Source: Pseudomonadota bacterium (GTDB lineage: Bacteria; Pseudomonadota; Gammaproteobacteria; Burkholderiales; Sulfuriferulaceae). Taken from it: a DNA stretch of 64,000 nt. The stretch spans positions 1 to 64,000 of the forward strand of contig JAJZUW010000007.1 of NCBI GenBank assembly GCA_021845925.1. Direction: 5' to 3'. The notes under the pieces were generated by a model. That model ran no database searches, was not told the DNA's origin, and saw only the letters and a program-made list of their open reading frames with translations. The stretch's first letter is position 1, and every line of letters begins with the position of its first letter. Position numbers and translations under genes: made by a program. Shown here one piece after another: positions 1 to 4,977 of the stretch.

Positions 1-87
1 GCCTGGATGAAAGACACGCTGGAAAAACTACCCGCCTGGCCGAACAGTCGGCTGGATGAACTGCTGCCGCTCAAAGCAGAAGCATAA
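1..87 (+). CDS. IS66 family transposase, C-terminal 28 residues only
   Basis: Frame 1 is open from the first base to TAA at 85-87 and ends in a tail with WMKDTLEKLPAWPNSRLDEL followed by LPLKAEA. This matches the known C-terminal tail of IS66 TnpC transposases, where a WxxDxLxRLPxWPNxRxxELLP pattern is conserved. The DDE catalytic core lies upstream, outside the window, so activity cannot be judged. The terminal inverted repeat follows 39 bases after the stop, the normal spacing for this family. It is too short to be called by an ORF length cut-off and would be missed if only long frames were examined. Confidence 0.8.
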   Translation, partial: AWMKDTLEKLPAWPNSRLDELLPLKAEA

Positions 88-126
88 ATCAACGGCCGGT
101 CATAGATGGGAGGGCTGGCCGCTTAC
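1..126 (+). mobile_element. Right end of an IS66-family insertion sequence (partial)
   Basis: The window opens inside an insertion sequence. It holds the last codons of an IS66-type transposase (stop at 85-87), then about 39 bases ending in GGCCGCTTAC at 126. Read from outside inward the end is GTAAGCGGCCAGCC, which has the GTAAGCG start known for IS66-family terminal repeats. The left end and accessory genes lie outside the window, so neither the full length nor the target duplication can be checked. The eight bases just outside the end (127-134, GGATCATA) are the expected copy of the family's 8-bp duplication. The element abuts the attC-like cassette region and may have truncated a cassette there. 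Confidence 0.75.
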
Positions 127-241
127 GGATCATAGATGACAGGTACTGTTGAACCAACTTTTAATAACCTGTATTCCGATCGGCCAAACCGGACATTGTT
201 TGTCAGCTCGTGCTACTTCAGCTTTATACAGGAAAGCAGAC

Positions 242-304
242 GTTTAACGTCTAAGCTCAGGGGCGCACCGCTTGCGGCGCGTCCCTTGGAGCGAAATGTT
301 AGAT
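242..304 (-). other. Candidate integron attC site (63 bp)
   Basis: Read on the minus strand, the site begins with ATCTAAC (304-298), which fits the RYYYAAC inverse core. It ends with GTTAAAC (248-242), which fits the GTTRRRY core where integrases cut. Between them is an imperfect palindrome whose inner arms (GGGACGCGCCGC and its near-complement GCGGTGCGCCCC) flank a short AA-type loop, with unpaired bases on one arm as attC folds require. The site starts only four bases after the stop codon of the minus-strand gene at 309, exactly where an attC sits in a gene cassette. No integrase gene is in the window, and a second attC was not found upstream of that gene. Called from motif and geometry only. 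Confidence 0.6.
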
Positions 305-308
305 TTCT

Positions 309-1766
309 TCACGAGACAACAGTGGAGGTTGAAATGATGATTTGCTCCGCGACGAACCTAAGCAGCGGGATTTCACGTAATAACACACGGTCATCACGAA
401 ATGGAACGAAGCGTGCCCGTTCGGATTCTTTGCTGTGAACAATCGAATTGCGGATGCGGTATATGCGTTGCGCTAGCCGCTTAACGATTGCATCACGATC
501 AGTTTCGGTAAGGTCGATTTCATCGGCATTTGCGAATCCAACCTTTGAGGTCCGATAGTAAGTAAGCAGATTCGGATCGTATGCTTCAACCTGGCTCCGC
601 AAATTGTCTACGTCGACGTATCTTTCCAGCGTTAAACGCAACGCTTCTTGCTCACTGAAGGTGATGCGTTCATTTCGAATCTGAAGGCTACGGCTGATGT
701 CTTTGATAAGCCCGCCTATATCCTTCTTTCGCTTGTATGAAAAATCCGGCTGTGTAATTTTGTGTTTTATCTTTTCCACCAAGTCCTCGTTGAACACCTC
801 TTCGAAGAAATGCTCCGCGATGTGGTAATACGAAAGATACTCTAGGAATGGATTGTCACCAGCAACTGCAAGCTGATAGTGATGAACAAGGTCTGGCAAA
901 TAGTGTCGGCGTGGCGGGTCTATTTCTGAAAGATTTGCTCTTCTAATATCAGTAATTCGTCCCGTTCGCATCAATTCATCAATGTGCCTCTGCGGCACTA
1001 AAGCAGAATCAAGGTTATAGCTAAGCTGAAATAGGAACGCCGTGGAGAAGCGTTCGAAATCTGTTGAACTCCGATTACGATCCGAGGAAATCTGTAACGT
1101 GATGAACCTAACGAAGAAGCGTTTGAGCATGTCGAAGGCATCCGACTCTCCGTTAGCCTCACCTCTCTCAGCAATTCGATTCATTGAAACAGGGCCCGCT
1201 AGTCGCCTTGGGCTACCAAGGGATGCAGCGCTCATTAGGAGGAATAGGAAATACGCGTCACTTGGTTGCGTCAGAGAGTAACGAAGACCGTTGTCATTGT
1301 CGGATATCACAAGAGGTTCCTCGCGCATTCGCATACGAATACGCGGGAATGGAGATTCATCTCTCAGTAGCACCTCATGGGAGCGTGAGTCCCAAAGTGT
1401 TGTCTCGTCTGATACGTCCAGCGCTTTTAACTGTGCAATAGCCTCAGTTAGCCGTGATTTTTCGAGAGAAGTCTTGAGTTCCCGAGAAACGCGGGTCATG
1501 TCGAAGTCATACGTGGCATCCGTTTCCGTTACATCGGCGCGGAGAACGTCTGCAATCCAGGAGACAAATTCGTCTGTGGTGGCGTTTATTTGCATAGTGG
1601 CGATGTGTTGAGGTTCAATTTCTGAATAAATCAGATTCTCAACCGAATGGCGGTTTAACGCAACACAGCGGCCTAAATTGGATGAATTATCGAATGTCTG
1701 CTTTGGCCGAGGACCTGTCAGCCAGCGGCTCCTTGAAATGTCTGCTGTACTTTGTTTACTTGCCAT
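309..1766 (-). CDS. Uncharacterised 485-residue protein with a C-terminal HEPN-like RNxxxH motif; candidate integron cassette gene
   Basis: I do not recognise the family. The protein has no signal peptide or membrane segment and is rich in charged helices. Near its end it carries RIRNSIVHSK, with R439-N-S-I-V-H444. This matches the RX4-6H motif of HEPN domains, with the usual polar residue after the arginine, and it lies between predicted helices as in HEPN ribonucleases and ApeA-like proteins. The start at 1766 is supported by AGAGG five bases upstream; Met58 (1595) is an alternative but has no clear ribosome site. Base composition is visibly poorer in GC than the flanking core genes. It lies between an IS66 end and lipA, with an attC-like site right after the stop, which suggests recent acquisition. 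HEPN proteins are often defence or toxin RNases; that role here is inference. Confidence 0.72.
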   Translation of the reverse strand: MASKQSTADISRSRWLTGPRPKQTFDNSSNLGRCVALNRHSVENLIYSEIEPQHIATMQINATTDEFVSWIADVLRADVTETDATYDFDMTRVSRELKTSLEKSRLTEAIAQLKALDVSDETTLWDSRSHEVLLRDESPFPRIRMRMREEPLVISDNDNGLRYSLTQPSDAYFLFLLMSAASLGSPRRLAGPVSMNRIAERGEANGESDAFDMLKRFFVRFITLQISSDRNRSSTDFERFSTAFLFQLSYNLDSALVPQRHIDELMRTGRITDIRRANLSEIDPPRRHYLPDLVHHYQLAVAGDNPFLEYLSYYHIAEHFFEEVFNEDLVEKIKHKITQPDFSYKRKKDIGGLIKDISRSLQIRNERITFSEQEALRLTLERYVDVDNLRSQVEAYDPNLLTYYRTSKVGFANADEIDLTETDRDAIVKRLAQRIYRIRNSIVHSKESERARFVPFRDDRVLLREIPLLRFVAEQIIISTSTVVS

Positions 1767-1955
1767 GCAGCCTCTGATGACGCGAGCGGCGGCTCCAGGC
1801 CGGTAAGAGCCATTCAGATTCCAATCAAACCAGTAAGTTAGTCAACATGTGATTTCCAAGCACGGCATCTGTTCATGTGTTCCAGCTCGATGGTTCAGTT
1901 CCAACCTTAAAATGCAAATAGCTTGTTTTCTCAGTACCCATATCGATGTCGAGTA

Positions 1956-2909
1956 CTATTTATCGTTGTCAATGTCATGCGCCCCGGCAGCGCGTGCCTG
2001 TTCGTCTGCGTGGTAGCTGCTGCGCACCATCGGGCCACAGGCTGCGTGGGTGAAGCCCATCGTTTCGGCTGCCTGGCCAAACGCTTCGAACTGTTCCGGT
2101 GTCACAAAACGTTCCAGCGCGATATGGTGGGCGGATGGCTGCAGGTACTGGCCGATGGTCAGCATGTCAATCTGGTGTTCGCGCATGTCGCGCATCACTT
2201 CCAGTACTTCGTCATCGGTTTCGCCAAGACCGACCATGATGCCCGACTTCGTCGGGATATCCGGATGCCGGGCTTTGAACTCGGCCAGCAGGCGGAGTGA
2301 ATGCCGGTAGTCGGCACCGGGACGTGCTGCCTTGTACAGACGCGGAATGGTTTCCAGATTGTGGTTCATCACGTCAGGCAGCGCTGTGGCCAGAATATCC
2401 AGTGCGGTTTCCAGCCGGCCACGAAAATCGGGCACCAGAATTTCGATGCGGGTTTGCGGGGAAACCTCACGCACCGCACGTATGCAATCGGCGAAGTGCT
2501 GCGCGCCGCCATCACGCAGATCGTCGCGATCCACGCTGGTGATGACGACATAACGCAGTTGCATGGCGGCAATGGTGCGGGCCAGGTTGGCTGGCTCTTC
2601 GGCATCTGGCGGCAGTGGAGTGCCATGGCCGACATCGCAGAATGGACATCGGCGGGTACACAGGTCACCCAGAATCATGAAGGTGGCGGTGCCATGACCG
2701 AAACATTCGCCCAGGTTCGGACAGGAGGCTTCTTCGCAAACCGTATGCAGGTGGTTGTCGCGCAGGATCTGTTTGAGCTGGATCACCCGCGCGGAATTGG
2801 GCGCCTTGGCACGGATCCACGCCGGCATGCGCTGGCGGGGTTTTGGCACGATGGGAATCGGAATACGGGACGTCTTGGCGGCGCCCTTGTGCTGAAGCTT
2901 GTCGGCCAC
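1956..2909 (-). CDS. lipA: Lipoyl synthase
   Basis: Radical-SAM enzyme that inserts two sulfurs into the octanoyl group on the E2 subunits of 2-oxoacid dehydrogenases and on GcvH. The 317 residues are the normal length. C58, C63 and C69 ([12 protein letters not shown]) form the auxiliary cluster typical of LipA that is consumed as sulfur donor. C84, C88 and C91 (CTRRCPFC) hold the radical-SAM cluster. The C-terminal RSSYHA motif, whose serine contacts the auxiliary cluster, is present. It is the last gene of the leftward operon, 14 bases after lipB, which makes its octanoyl substrate. Downstream lies the accessory HEPN/IS66 patch. Confidence 0.97.
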
Positions 2910-2923
2910 GGCGAAAGGTCCTG

Positions 2924-3544
2924 TCAGGTTGTTGACCGGCCAATGTTCTGCACAAGCAGTCCGGCCAGCTGGGATTGTGTGGTCCCGATTGTAACATTGT
3001 CTGCCAGGTCACGCAGTTGGGTGACTGCCATGCCGGCATAACCGCATGGATTGATGGCCGAAAACGGTTGCAGGTCCATGTCGGTATTCAGTGCCAGTCC
3101 ATGGTAACTGCGCCCGTGACGGACGCGCAGGCCCAACGAGGCAATCTTGCGACCATCGACATAGACGCCCGGAGCCGATTCGCGTCGCTCGCCAGTGATG
3201 CCATACCCGGCCAGCAGCATGATCACGGCCTGCTCCATGCGATTGACCAGTTCCCTGACGCCATATCCGCGTCTGGGCAGATCAACCATCAGATAGGCGA
3301 TGATCTGGCCCGGGCCATGATAAGTGATCTGGCCGCCACGGTCAGTCCTGACCAGCGGAATCGCATTGCGCTGCAACAGATGGCTTTCCAGTCCTGCCTG
3401 CCCCAGGGTGTAGACCGGCGTGTGGCTGGTCAGCCAGAGCTCGTCCGCTGTATCGGCCTGACGGGCCAGCGTGAATGCCTGCATGGCCTGCCAGGTGGCC
3501 AGATAATCGGTTTGTCCGAGGTCGCGTACCAGCAAGGCTGTCAT
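2924..3544 (-). CDS. lipB: Octanoyl-[acyl-carrier-protein]:protein N-octanoyltransferase
   Basis: Transfers octanoate from acyl carrier protein to the lipoyl-domain lysine, the step before LipA. The open frame extends to 3670, but the family N-terminus ([10 protein letters not shown]) begins at 3544. There ATG overlaps the stop of the preceding gene as TGATG, giving 206 residues. The substrate-pocket motif [12 protein letters not shown] (69-80), the catalytic lysine in GRKIASLG (K133) and the thioester cysteine in INPCGYAG (C167) are all present. It lies in the operon dacA-ybeD-lipB-lipA, an arrangement known from many proteobacteria. Confidence 0.96.
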
Positions 3545-3807
3545 CAGAGCACGACTTTGACCAGAGGATGCGCCGACAGCTCCCGGTACAGATTGTCGAG
3601 CTGTTCGCGCGAAACGGCCCGGATGGTACAGGTGAGGCTCAGGTAATTGCCTGAGCTGCTGGGACGGCACTCCATGCTGGCCGGATCGAAGTCGGGTGCA
3701 TGACGGGTAACCACTTCCAGCAGCACCGTGCTGAATCCATCTGCCGCTTGTCCCATGATCTTGATCGGAAAATCGCAGGGGTATTCGATCAGTGAATCTT
3801 CATGCAT
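3544..3807 (-). CDS. ybeD: DUF493 family protein, YbeD-like
   Basis: Small 87-residue protein of the YbeD/DUF493 family, which has an ACT-like alpha/beta fold resembling the regulatory domain of serine/threonine metabolic enzymes. The biochemical role is not established. The gene lies between dacA and lipB as in Escherichia coli, nine bases after dacA and overlapping lipB as TGATG, so translation is likely coupled. The sequence has the family pattern of an N-terminal strand ([11 protein letters not shown]), a central VVTRHAPDF and a C-terminal [15 protein letters not shown]. Linkage to lipoate genes suggests a regulatory tie, but this is inference. Confidence 0.9.
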
Positions 3808-3816
3808 GGCTGTCTC

Positions 3817-4977
3817 TCAGTGAAACATGAGCATCAGGCTGTCCCAGGCCCGTCCCAGCGCGCTGGCGACCGGAACATTGTCGAGGGCTTGCAGCGGATA
3901 CTGGGCCAGTACCTTGCCTTGCAGGCTCACCGTCAGCGTACCGATGGTTTGTCCTGCAGTGAGCGGAGCCAGCAGAGGCTGGTGGGTGGTCAGCCGGGTG
4001 ACCAGCTGATGCGCCTGACCATGTGGCACGCTCAGCGTGATGTCGTGGGTGAAGCCGGCGTTGACCATGGCGGATTTGCCCCGCCATACCTTGATTCGGG
4101 TAATGGGCTGGTTGGCGCGGTACAGACGGATGCCATCAAAAAACTGGAATCCGTAGTTGAGCAGTTTCTGGCTTTCGCTGGCACGCAGGGCGTCGGTCGG
4201 CGTGCCCAGCACGACGGATACCAGCCGGCGTTCGCCACGGTGTGCCGTGGCGATCAGGCAGTAACCGGCTTCCTCGGTGTGGCCGGTTTTCATGCCGTCC
4301 ACGCTCGGGTCAGACCACAGCAGGCGATTGCGGTTGGCCTGGGTAATGTTGTTGTAACGGTACTCGCGGATCGAGAACAGCGGCATGTACTGCGGAAATT
4401 CGCGGATGATTGCCGCCGTTAGCGTCGCCAGATCGCGTGCGGTGGTGTAGTGCTGCGGATCGGGCAGTCCGGTGGCTGTGACAAAATGCGTGTGATTCAT
4501 GCCCAGTTGTGCGGCAGCCTTGTTCATCATGACGACAAATCCCGCTTCGCTGCCACCGAGCCGTTCGGCAAGCGCCACCGTGGCATCGTTGCCGGACTGG
4601 ACGATCATGCCATGCAGCAGATCGTCGACGCTGACCGGCTTGCCGGGGTTGATGAACATGCGCGAACCGCCGGTCTGCCAGGCATGTACGGAAGGTTCAA
4701 CAGTATCGGTCAGTTTGAGCGCTCCCTGCTGCAGTGCGGAAAACACCAGGTATGCGGTCATCAGTTTGGTGAGCGAGGCTGGCTGGATCCGGTTGTCCGC
4801 ATTGGCGCTGTCCAGAATCTGGTTGCTGGACAGGTCAAGCAGCAGCCACGCGGAAGCATCCAGCTGGGGAGGTGGTGGTGGCGGCAGGTCCAGGGCAAGG
4901 GCGGTTTTGACGGACAGTAACAGGGCCAGCAGGACAAGCAGGGTGCGTTTCATCATATGGATTCCATGGGGTTGCAT
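3817..4977 (-). CDS. dacA: D-alanyl-D-alanine carboxypeptidase, PBP5/6 type
   Basis: Periplasmic DD-carboxypeptidase that trims the terminal D-alanine of peptidoglycan stem peptides. All active-site motifs are present: SLTK (S68-K71), SGN (128-130) and KTG (230-232). A C-terminal all-beta domain follows, ending in an amphipathic tail (LGRAWDSLMLMF) of the kind that anchors PBP5 in the inner membrane. An N-terminal signal peptide (KRTLLVLLALLL, cleavage near ALA) is evident. The ATG at 4977 overlaps the rlpA stop as TGATG; Met8 at 4956 would give a more typical short signal-peptide start and cannot be excluded. It belongs to the mre-mrd-rlpA morphogenesis operon. Confidence 0.94.
   Translation of the reverse strand: MQPHGIHMMKRTLLVLLALLLSVKTALALDLPPPPPPQLDASAWLLLDLSSNQILDSANADNRIQPASLTKLMTAYLVFSALQQGALKLTDTVEPSVHAWQTGGSRMFINPGKPVSVDDLLHGMIVQSGNDATVALAERLGGSEAGFVVMMNKAAAQLGMNHTHFVTATGLPDPQHYTTARDLATLTAAIIREFPQYMPLFSIREYRYNNITQANRNRLLWSDPSVDGMKTGHTEEAGYCLIATAHRGERRLVSVVLGTPTDALRASESQKLLNYGFQFFDGIRLYRANQPITRIKVWRGKSAMVNAGFTHDITLSVPHGQAHQLVTRLTTHQPLLAPLTAGQTIGTLTVSLQGKVLAQYPLQALDNVPVASALGRAWDSLMLMFH

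What the first reader, a model, noticed from the sequence alone, without database searches (positions are those of the whole stretch)
242..1766. Orphan attC-linked cassette carrying an unrecognised HEPN-motif protein
A 485-residue protein of no family I recognise ends with an RNSIVH motif (R439-H444) that fits catalytic HEPN RNases. Four bases after its stop lies a 63-bp sequence with the full attC layout. It lies next to an IS66 end and lipA, in DNA poorer in GC than its surroundings. HEPN domains often serve as toxins or anti-phage nucleases, and integron cassettes are known to carry toxins and defence genes. A stand-alone cassette with its own effector, no integrase and no visible antitoxin would be an unusual candidate defence unit.
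Basis: partly seen in the sequence, partly recalled or inferred. Interest (0 to 1): 0.8.

Follow-up and report, generated by a model that had tools for sequence, protein, structure and literature searches.

The report
Integron cassette with HEPN ribonuclease-like protein
A bacterial chromosome carries a single leftover mobile gene cassette whose gene looks like a self-contained RNA-cutting switch, possibly a phage-triggered defence protein, of a rare family also found on other kinds of mobile DNA.

Summary
An intact ORF (309-1766, minus) ends four bases before a 63-bp attC (242-304). A covariance model of 17 attC from other genomes, this site excluded, scores it 69.1 bits (E 5.5e-14) on the gene's strand and 13.7 on the other. 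It is the only attC found in the genome, and no integron integrase passes the family cut-off. Homology starts at Met58 and a possible cassette 5' boundary (GTTAAAC, 1653-1659) lies inside the ORF, so the protein is probably 428 aa. The block sits between lipA and a gene that lies 38 bp from lipA in a congener; an IS66 copy cut the DNA after the attC. The C-terminal ~205 residues match PADLOC DzbB and, weakly, Pfam MauJ. RNxxVH is invariant in 11 of 11 aligned sequences (window plus 10) and ends a long predicted helix, as in HEPN. Fold comparison leans to HEPN but is not significant. Homologues are rare; 6 of 12 loci show mobile-element signs, one lies near a Borvo-like gene, none has an attC of this type. 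Best reading: a one-gene sensor-plus-HEPN RNase acting like Tha. HEPN in integron cassettes is already described; I found no report of this family there.

The parts
242..304 (-). attC site (R'' ATCTAAC at 304-298, R' GTTAAAC at 248-242 on the minus strand), oriented with the gene
   Evidence: Covariance model R2, this site excluded: 69.1 bits, E 5.5e-14; same layout as attC in integron arrays of other genomes
309..1595 (-). probable gene: 428-aa protein from Met58, N-terminal mixed alpha/beta part plus C-terminal HEPN-like domain
   Evidence: L001 starts here and the alignable part of L002-L009 starts near here; AlphaFold model pLDDT 76.4, pTM 0.71
312..929 (-). C-terminal HEPN-like domain (DzbB/MauJ-like)
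   Evidence: PADLOC DzbB 5.7e-12; domain model pLDDT 84.8, pTM 0.78
435..452 (-). RNSIVH motif (R439-H444; R382-H387 from Met58)
   Evidence: R, N, V, H invariant in 11 of 11 sequences; end of helix 145-164 of the domain model
1653..1659 (-). possible cassette 5' boundary, core site GTTAAAC (identical to the R' heptamer at 242-248)
   Evidence: Only GTTRRRY on this strand between Met58 and position 2000; weak by itself
1660..1955 (.). about 300 bp of low-GC DNA of unknown origin between lipA and the cassette
   Evidence: GC 0.467 for 1596-1955 and no match in the held loci; no attC of this type there; attI was not searched for
135..241 (-). start of the sequence after the attC: remnant of a second gene, interrupted by IS66
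   Evidence: A frame continues across the IS66 target duplication into contig C9; no Pfam match of either piece
127..134 (.). 8-bp IS66 target duplication GGATCATA
   Evidence: Same 8 bases next to the other IS end at C9:128-135
1..126 (+). right end of an IS66-family element; the contig edge lies inside it
   Evidence: Pfam DDE_Tnp_IS66_C 2e-7; 6 places in the genome, this one included
1956..2909 (-). lipA, co-directional upstream neighbour; read-through from it could express the cassette
   Evidence: ORF; near-full-length matches at 77-90% identity in 13 of the 17 other genomes of the genus; no terminator-like site between it and the gene; the name lipA is recalled

Best explanation
This is an integron gene cassette, stranded on the chromosome behind lipA without an integrase. 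It carries a one-gene toxin-like effector: an N-terminal part that senses a trigger, and a C-terminal HEPN domain that dimerises and cuts RNA when triggered, stopping phage growth at the cost of the infected cell, as Tha does. Shown: ORF, attC and its orientation, no second attC of this type and no integron integrase over cut-off, extra DNA relative to a congener, invariance of RNxxVH, helical C-terminal prediction. Inferred: HEPN fold (about 0.88), RNase activity (about 0.75), expression by read-through from lipA (about 0.5), sensing by the N-terminal part (about 0.5), anti-phage role (about 0.5).
For: attC: (and 45, where the model included this site). R, N, V, H of RNxxVH and the E of YYHxxEHFF invariant in 11 of 11 sequences. 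Motif at the end of a long helix, where PMC3710099 places Rx4-6H (passages). DzbB matches 10 of 10 A2 members, window included. In the domain fold comparison, 5 of the 8 listed rows with at least 105 aligned residues are HEPN-type (4nqf, 6tug, 5yjc, 6qzt, and MtlR 3brj, which PMC3710099 lists as HEPN) and 4nqf ranks first; the cut was mine, and at 100 residues it is 5 of 10. Mobile-element signs at 6 of 12 homologue loci. A Borvo BovA-like gene near the Priestia homologue. Tha: single protein, C-terminal HEPN, RNSIMH, non-specific RNase triggered by a phage tail protein (PMC11087260 passages).
Against: Foldseek gives no PDB match under E 0.001 for the whole model or the domain; all VIA Z are 5.0 or less and unrelated rows score alike. 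Pfam HEPN_Apea matches only 2 of 10 members, best 0.079, and not the window protein. hhalign with one ApeA-like protein gives 2.2% probability (a single sequence, so a weak test). No experiment and no expression data. No homologue beside an attC of this type. In the Streptomyces loci, NUDIX, HD and GntR genes recur near the homologue; I read them as element backbone, but a functional partner among them is not excluded. Only one homologue was seen near a recognised defence gene, out of the few neighbours tested.
Confidence: 0.5

Rival explanations
1. A HEPN RNase cassette that acts as a stress or dormancy switch, or as a stabilising (addiction-like) element, and not against phages.
For: Anantharaman et al. 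proposed a stress/dormancy role for integron-cassette HEPN proteins (PMC3710099 passage); homologues sit on plasmids and apparent integrative elements.
Against: No gene that looks like an antitoxin lies next to it at the window locus, and no neighbour recurs across phyla by eye, although NUDIX and HD genes recur among Streptomyces loci. The gene is tolerated alone, so it must be self-inhibited or triggered.
Confidence: 0.27
2. A stand-alone derivative of the Dazbog effector DzbB that once worked with the system's DUF262 protein.
For: DzbB model matches 10 of 10 A2 members over its C-terminal part.
Against: The match covers profile positions 185-336 of 341 only. The window locus has lipA on one side and IS66 on the other; no DUF262 match among the 3 locus proteins and 11 homologue neighbours given to Pfam, which is a part of the neighbours.
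Confidence: 0.12
3. A decayed, silent relic: a captured foreign gene with no present function.
For: Single cassette, no integrase, no consensus promoter on its strand (where about 2 would be expected by chance on both strands), cut array, found in 1 of 399 genomes of the order, its own.
Against: ORF intact over the full homologous length with all invariant residues; co-directional with lipA without a terminator-like site between.
Confidence: 0.1
4. A helical-bundle protein of another fold in which RNxxVH is structural.
For: No significant Foldseek match.
Against: Motif invariance, motif place, invariant acidic residue in a preceding helix, HEPN-type rows among the best-covering matches.
Confidence: 0.1

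Closest known systems
Integron-cassette HEPN family (PDB 3jrt, Vibrio Vpc_cass2; PMC3710099)
   Same: HEPN-type protein encoded by an integron cassette; proposed RNase (passages)
Tha of S. aureus prophages (PMC11087260)
   Same: Single protein, C-terminal HEPN, RNSIMH against RNSIVH; the working model is taken from it
   Different: 301 aa, prophage-encoded; no sequence comparison was made here
Dazbog DzbB (PADLOC PDLC03836)
   Same: C-terminal domain, 5.7e-12
   Different: Dazbog includes a DUF262 gene needed for resistance (PMC10952713 passages; that it is DzbA is recalled); none found here; N-terminal half unmatched
MauJ (Pfam PF17419)
   Same: 10 of 10 members match, best 1.3e-6
   Different: Window protein is at 17.6 bits against a cut-off of 28; no methylamine genes seen at the locus
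ApeA-type HEPN (Pfam PF18739)
   Same: C-terminal HEPN with a large N-terminal part
   Different: Window protein has no match; 2 of 10 members weak
Vibrio integron defence cassettes
   Same: Integron cassettes as carriers of anti-phage genes (passages in PMC12444791, and PMC12926258; primary papers not read)
   Different: There in large arrays; here one stranded cassette in a genome without an integron integrase

Membership tests
Integron gene cassette | attC directly after the gene, in the gene's orientation | tested here: met
   69.1 bits on the gene strand, 13.7 on the other; model excludes this site but its 17 sites were chosen by likeness to it
Integron gene cassette | 5' boundary G^TTRRRY | tested here: inconclusive
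   GTTAAAC at 1653-1659, 57 bp before Met58; a single degenerate heptamer
Complete integron | Integron integrase | tested here: not met
   TIGR02249: 0 of 1 genome over cut-off; two tyrosine-recombinase genes, Xer-like by inference, ring below it, as do 14 of 14 control genomes. The general domain PF13495 passes its cut-off in one of the two
Complete integron | attI | not tested
   No attI model was made
CALIN (two or more attC without integrase) | At least two attC | tested here: not met
   One attC in the genome with R1 at E up to 1; 150 of 775 candidates scored; other attC types could be missed. Definition: PMC12444791
HEPN superfamily | Rx4-6H with a polar residue after R | tested here: met
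   RNSIVH; R, N, H invariant in 11 of 11 sequences. The distant relative G312, not in that alignment, reads RCKIVH
HEPN superfamily | Motif at the end of helix-3, before the loop to helix-4 | tested here: met
   Predicted helix 145-164 with R160-H165, then helix 180-200; helix numbering is inference
HEPN superfamily | Fold match to solved HEPN domains | tested here: inconclusive
HEPN superfamily | RNase activity | not testable with these tools
   needs an assay
Dazbog | DUF262 gene beside DzbB | tested here: not met
   Neighbours are lipA, IS66 and, beyond it, a small gene without a Pfam family and an MFS transporter
Dazbog | DzbB model match | tested here: inconclusive
   C-terminal 152 of 341 positions only
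MauJ (PF17419) | Score over the gathering cut-off | tested here: not met
   17.3 and 17.6 bits against 28
ApeA-type HEPN (PF18739) | Score over the gathering cut-off | tested here: not met
   No match listed for the window protein
HEPN-MNT toxin-antitoxin | Adjacent MNT antitoxin | tested here: inconclusive
   No ORF that looks like one next to the gene, by eye; no MNT model was run on the small ORFs
Tha | Sequence homology to Tha-1/Tha-2 | not tested
   Only the published motif was compared

The most novel reading that the evidence does not exclude
A previously undescribed one-gene defence family: a sensor fused to a DzbB/MauJ-like HEPN RNase that needs no partner and has spread between phyla as cargo of unrelated carriers (integron cassette, cyanobacterial conjugative plasmid, Bacillota plasmid near a Borvo-like gene, streptomycete integrative elements).
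Probability: 0.4. Interest if true: 0.6.

Novelty: new variant of a known kind. Interest (0 to 1): 0.42.

Why it matters
If right, it adds a single-gene RNase effector to the defence repertoire, ties the MauJ/DzbB domain to HEPN nucleases, and shows one gene family entering the integron cassette pool as well as plasmids and integrative elements. It is directly testable in laboratory E. coli with one gene and one catalytic change.

Tried and rejected
Tried, nothing found: Rfam over window 1-4000 (none); NCBIfam (none); PHROGs with A2 (best 0.055); PDB by sequence with the protein, A2 and A4 (no credible match); phages (0 of 50,697 records); viral contigs (105 pattern hits, none confirmed); E. 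coli genomes with window 1-1980, near mode (none); viral predicted structures (none under 0.001). The flanks 127-241, 1596-1955 and C9:128-415 have no useful match among held loci; plasmid searches found only a 48-base match over the attC in a Klebsiella plasmid and a 44-base match of 1596-1955. The DzbB model rings in 4 of 398 phylum genomes, own included, all over the C-terminal part; PF18739 in 1 of 200 genomes of the order, not this one.

Rejected: that the plus-strand orientation of the attC is the real one (13.7 against 69.1 bits). My first impression that GTTAGAT at the right-hand end set the orientation was wrong. Considered and not claimed: membership in Dazbog, MauJ, ApeA or HEPN-MNT. 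The second-gene remnant looks DUF3592-like to me from recall only; Pfam gave nothing for either piece.

Limits of counts: R1 and R2 recognise one attC type, so others near homologues or in the genome could be missed. The genome samples overlap. The genome-contig scan starts from short peptides and is not exhaustive. The 12 homologue loci are L001-L010, L065 and L068; L005, L007, L010 and L068 are short or reach a contig end. Neighbours were given to Pfam or PADLOC at 8 of the 12 (L001, L002, L003, L004, L006, L008, L009, L065), a few proteins each; those of L005, L007, L010 and L068 were not. Dropped from alignment A2: L010 (fragment at a contig end), L065 and L068; L010 is in A4.

Full report
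What is there. The window is the left end of contig C3 of a 2.34-Mb, 15-contig genome. From the left: the right end of an IS66-family element (1-126; Pfam DDE_Tnp_IS66_C 2e-7), an 8-bp target duplication (127-134), about 107 bp of a gene remnant, a 63-bp attC (242-304), the gene (309-1595 or 1766, minus), about 300 bp of unknown low-GC DNA, and lipA (1956-2909, minus; name recalled). GC is 0.477 in the cassette and 0.606 in lipA.

The attC is real. BLAST with 232-308 found matches in 8 of 61 related genomes, own included. At G059 they form an array in which genes run towards an attC on the same strand. Model R1, from 14 sites including this one, finds it at 74.6 bits and nothing else in the genome at E up to 1 (150 of 775 first-look candidates were scored). 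Because R1 contained the site, I built R2 from 17 sites of other genomes: 69.1 bits, E 5.5e-14, gene strand; 13.7 bits on the other strand. The 17 sites were found through likeness to this attC or by regular expression in the same loci, so the test shows that it belongs to that attC type, not that it was found blindly. The orientation is the one expected for the cassette of this gene.

No integron integrase. TIGR02249 gives two tyrosine-recombinase genes, neither over the cut-off; it rings in 14 of 14 control genomes too, over the cut-off in none. PF13495, a general domain, passes its cut-off in one of the two. That they are Xer genes is inferred.

Where it inserted. In congener G005, whose lipA protein is 90% identical, a small gene ends 38 bp from the end of lipA, followed by an MFS gene. 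In this genome homologues of both lie at the start of contig C9 in the same arrangement: small gene 63% identical over 163 columns, MFS 86% over 310 (MFS_1 1.3e-49). The 8 bases GGATCATA stand next to an IS66-like terminal sequence there and next to the window's IS66 end. So C9, IS66 and C3 are most likely adjacent, and the block with the cassette is extra DNA between lipA and the small gene. Joining the flanks in a script shows a minus-strand frame running through the IS66 site, the remnant of another gene after the attC. No reads close the gap.

The start. L001 (60% identical) starts at the residue matching Met58, in ORF and annotation, and the alignable part of the others starts near it. 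The one GTTRRRY on this strand between Met58 and position 2000 is GTTAAAC at 1653-1659, the same heptamer as the attC's R'; one such match in about 400 bp is weak evidence. I read the cassette as G^TTAAAC (1658) to 248, 1411 bp. Against this, Met1 has an AGAGG just before it.

Relatives. Genome contigs gave 10 loci: one Sphaerospermopsis plasmid, seven Streptomyces, two Frankia. Plasmids: 2 of 72,556 records, one of them the same Sphaerospermopsis plasmid. Related genomes: 1 of 100, own; phylum sample 2 of 398 (own, and G312 over the C-terminal part); order sample 1 of 399, own. The family is rare and scattered. Mobile signs at 6 of 12 loci: L001 (plasmid typed conjugative), L065 (plasmid typed non-mobilizable), L002 (FtsK-like, just under cut-off; tRNA-Tyr about 139 bp downstream), L004 and L006 (FtsK_SpoIIIE), L008 (integrase fragment just under cut-off, beside tRNA-Gly, some 3 kb away). 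The FtsK candidate of L003 had no Pfam match. That the Streptomyces elements are integrative conjugative elements is inference. No neighbour recurs across phyla by eye, but NUDIX and HD genes recur at L002, L003 and L005, and GntR with NUDIX at L004 and L006 (family-tested for L003 NUDIX and HD and for L002 and L006 GntR). At the Priestia plasmid, a CHAT gene matching Borvo BovA at 3.9e-63 lies on the other strand, one small hypothetical gene away. No attC of this type in any of the 12 loci (best 12.5 bits, E 3.1, in L004).

Mechanism. Most likely a self-contained switch: N-terminal part as sensor or inhibitor, C-terminal HEPN dimer cutting RNA when released. Tha is the model: one protein, R265NSIMH270, non-specific RNase triggered by a phage tail protein (PMC11087260 passages). 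Expression may come by read-through from lipA: the scan shows no terminator-like site and no consensus promoter on the strand between them, though it found fewer sites than shuffles would give, so it says little; its one terminator-like site, 253-237, overlaps the end of the attC. All of this is inference from anatomy.

Novelty. HEPN proteins in integron cassettes are described (PMC3710099), and integrons as defence stores are described for Vibrio (passages in PMC12444791, and PMC12926258). Searches of the open-access library showed no title or abstract on a MauJ/DzbB-type HEPN cassette. The lists of 48 (15 of 31 papers), (25 of 564; 12 of 19; 8 of 805) were capped; subscription papers are mostly outside the library; I saw listings and passages, not whole papers.

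Noticed in passing
L065:1716-5748: Priestia megaterium plasmid: near the MauJ-annotated homologue, on the other strand and one small gene away, lies a CHAT gene that matches Borvo BovA (3.9e-63); a possible small defence cluster.
   Followed up: partly
window 127-241 with contig C9:128-415 (L099): Remnant of a second gene after the attC, interrupted by IS66; DUF3592-like by eye only, no Pfam match of either piece.
   Followed up: partly
G000 contig ends C3 start, C10 end, C14 start and end: Four contig ends lie about 126 bp inside near-identical IS66 copies: assembly breaks at a multi-copy element.
   Followed up: yes
L055 (G059:C1:1060000-1079999): Chromosomal array of at least six closely spaced attC of the same type; its cassette genes were not studied.
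   Followed up: no
L001:9696-10817: Gene downstream of the Sphaerospermopsis homologue with an HNH-like CxxC...EHII motif by eye; no Pfam or PADLOC match.
   Followed up: partly
region downstream of lipA in the genus (L024-L036): By eye, the DNA next to the end of lipA differs between the 13 congeners looked at, so it looks like a variable site.
   Followed up: partly
L068/L069 (G312): Distant C-terminal relative in which the motif reads RCKIVH, with C in place of the usual N.
   Followed up: no
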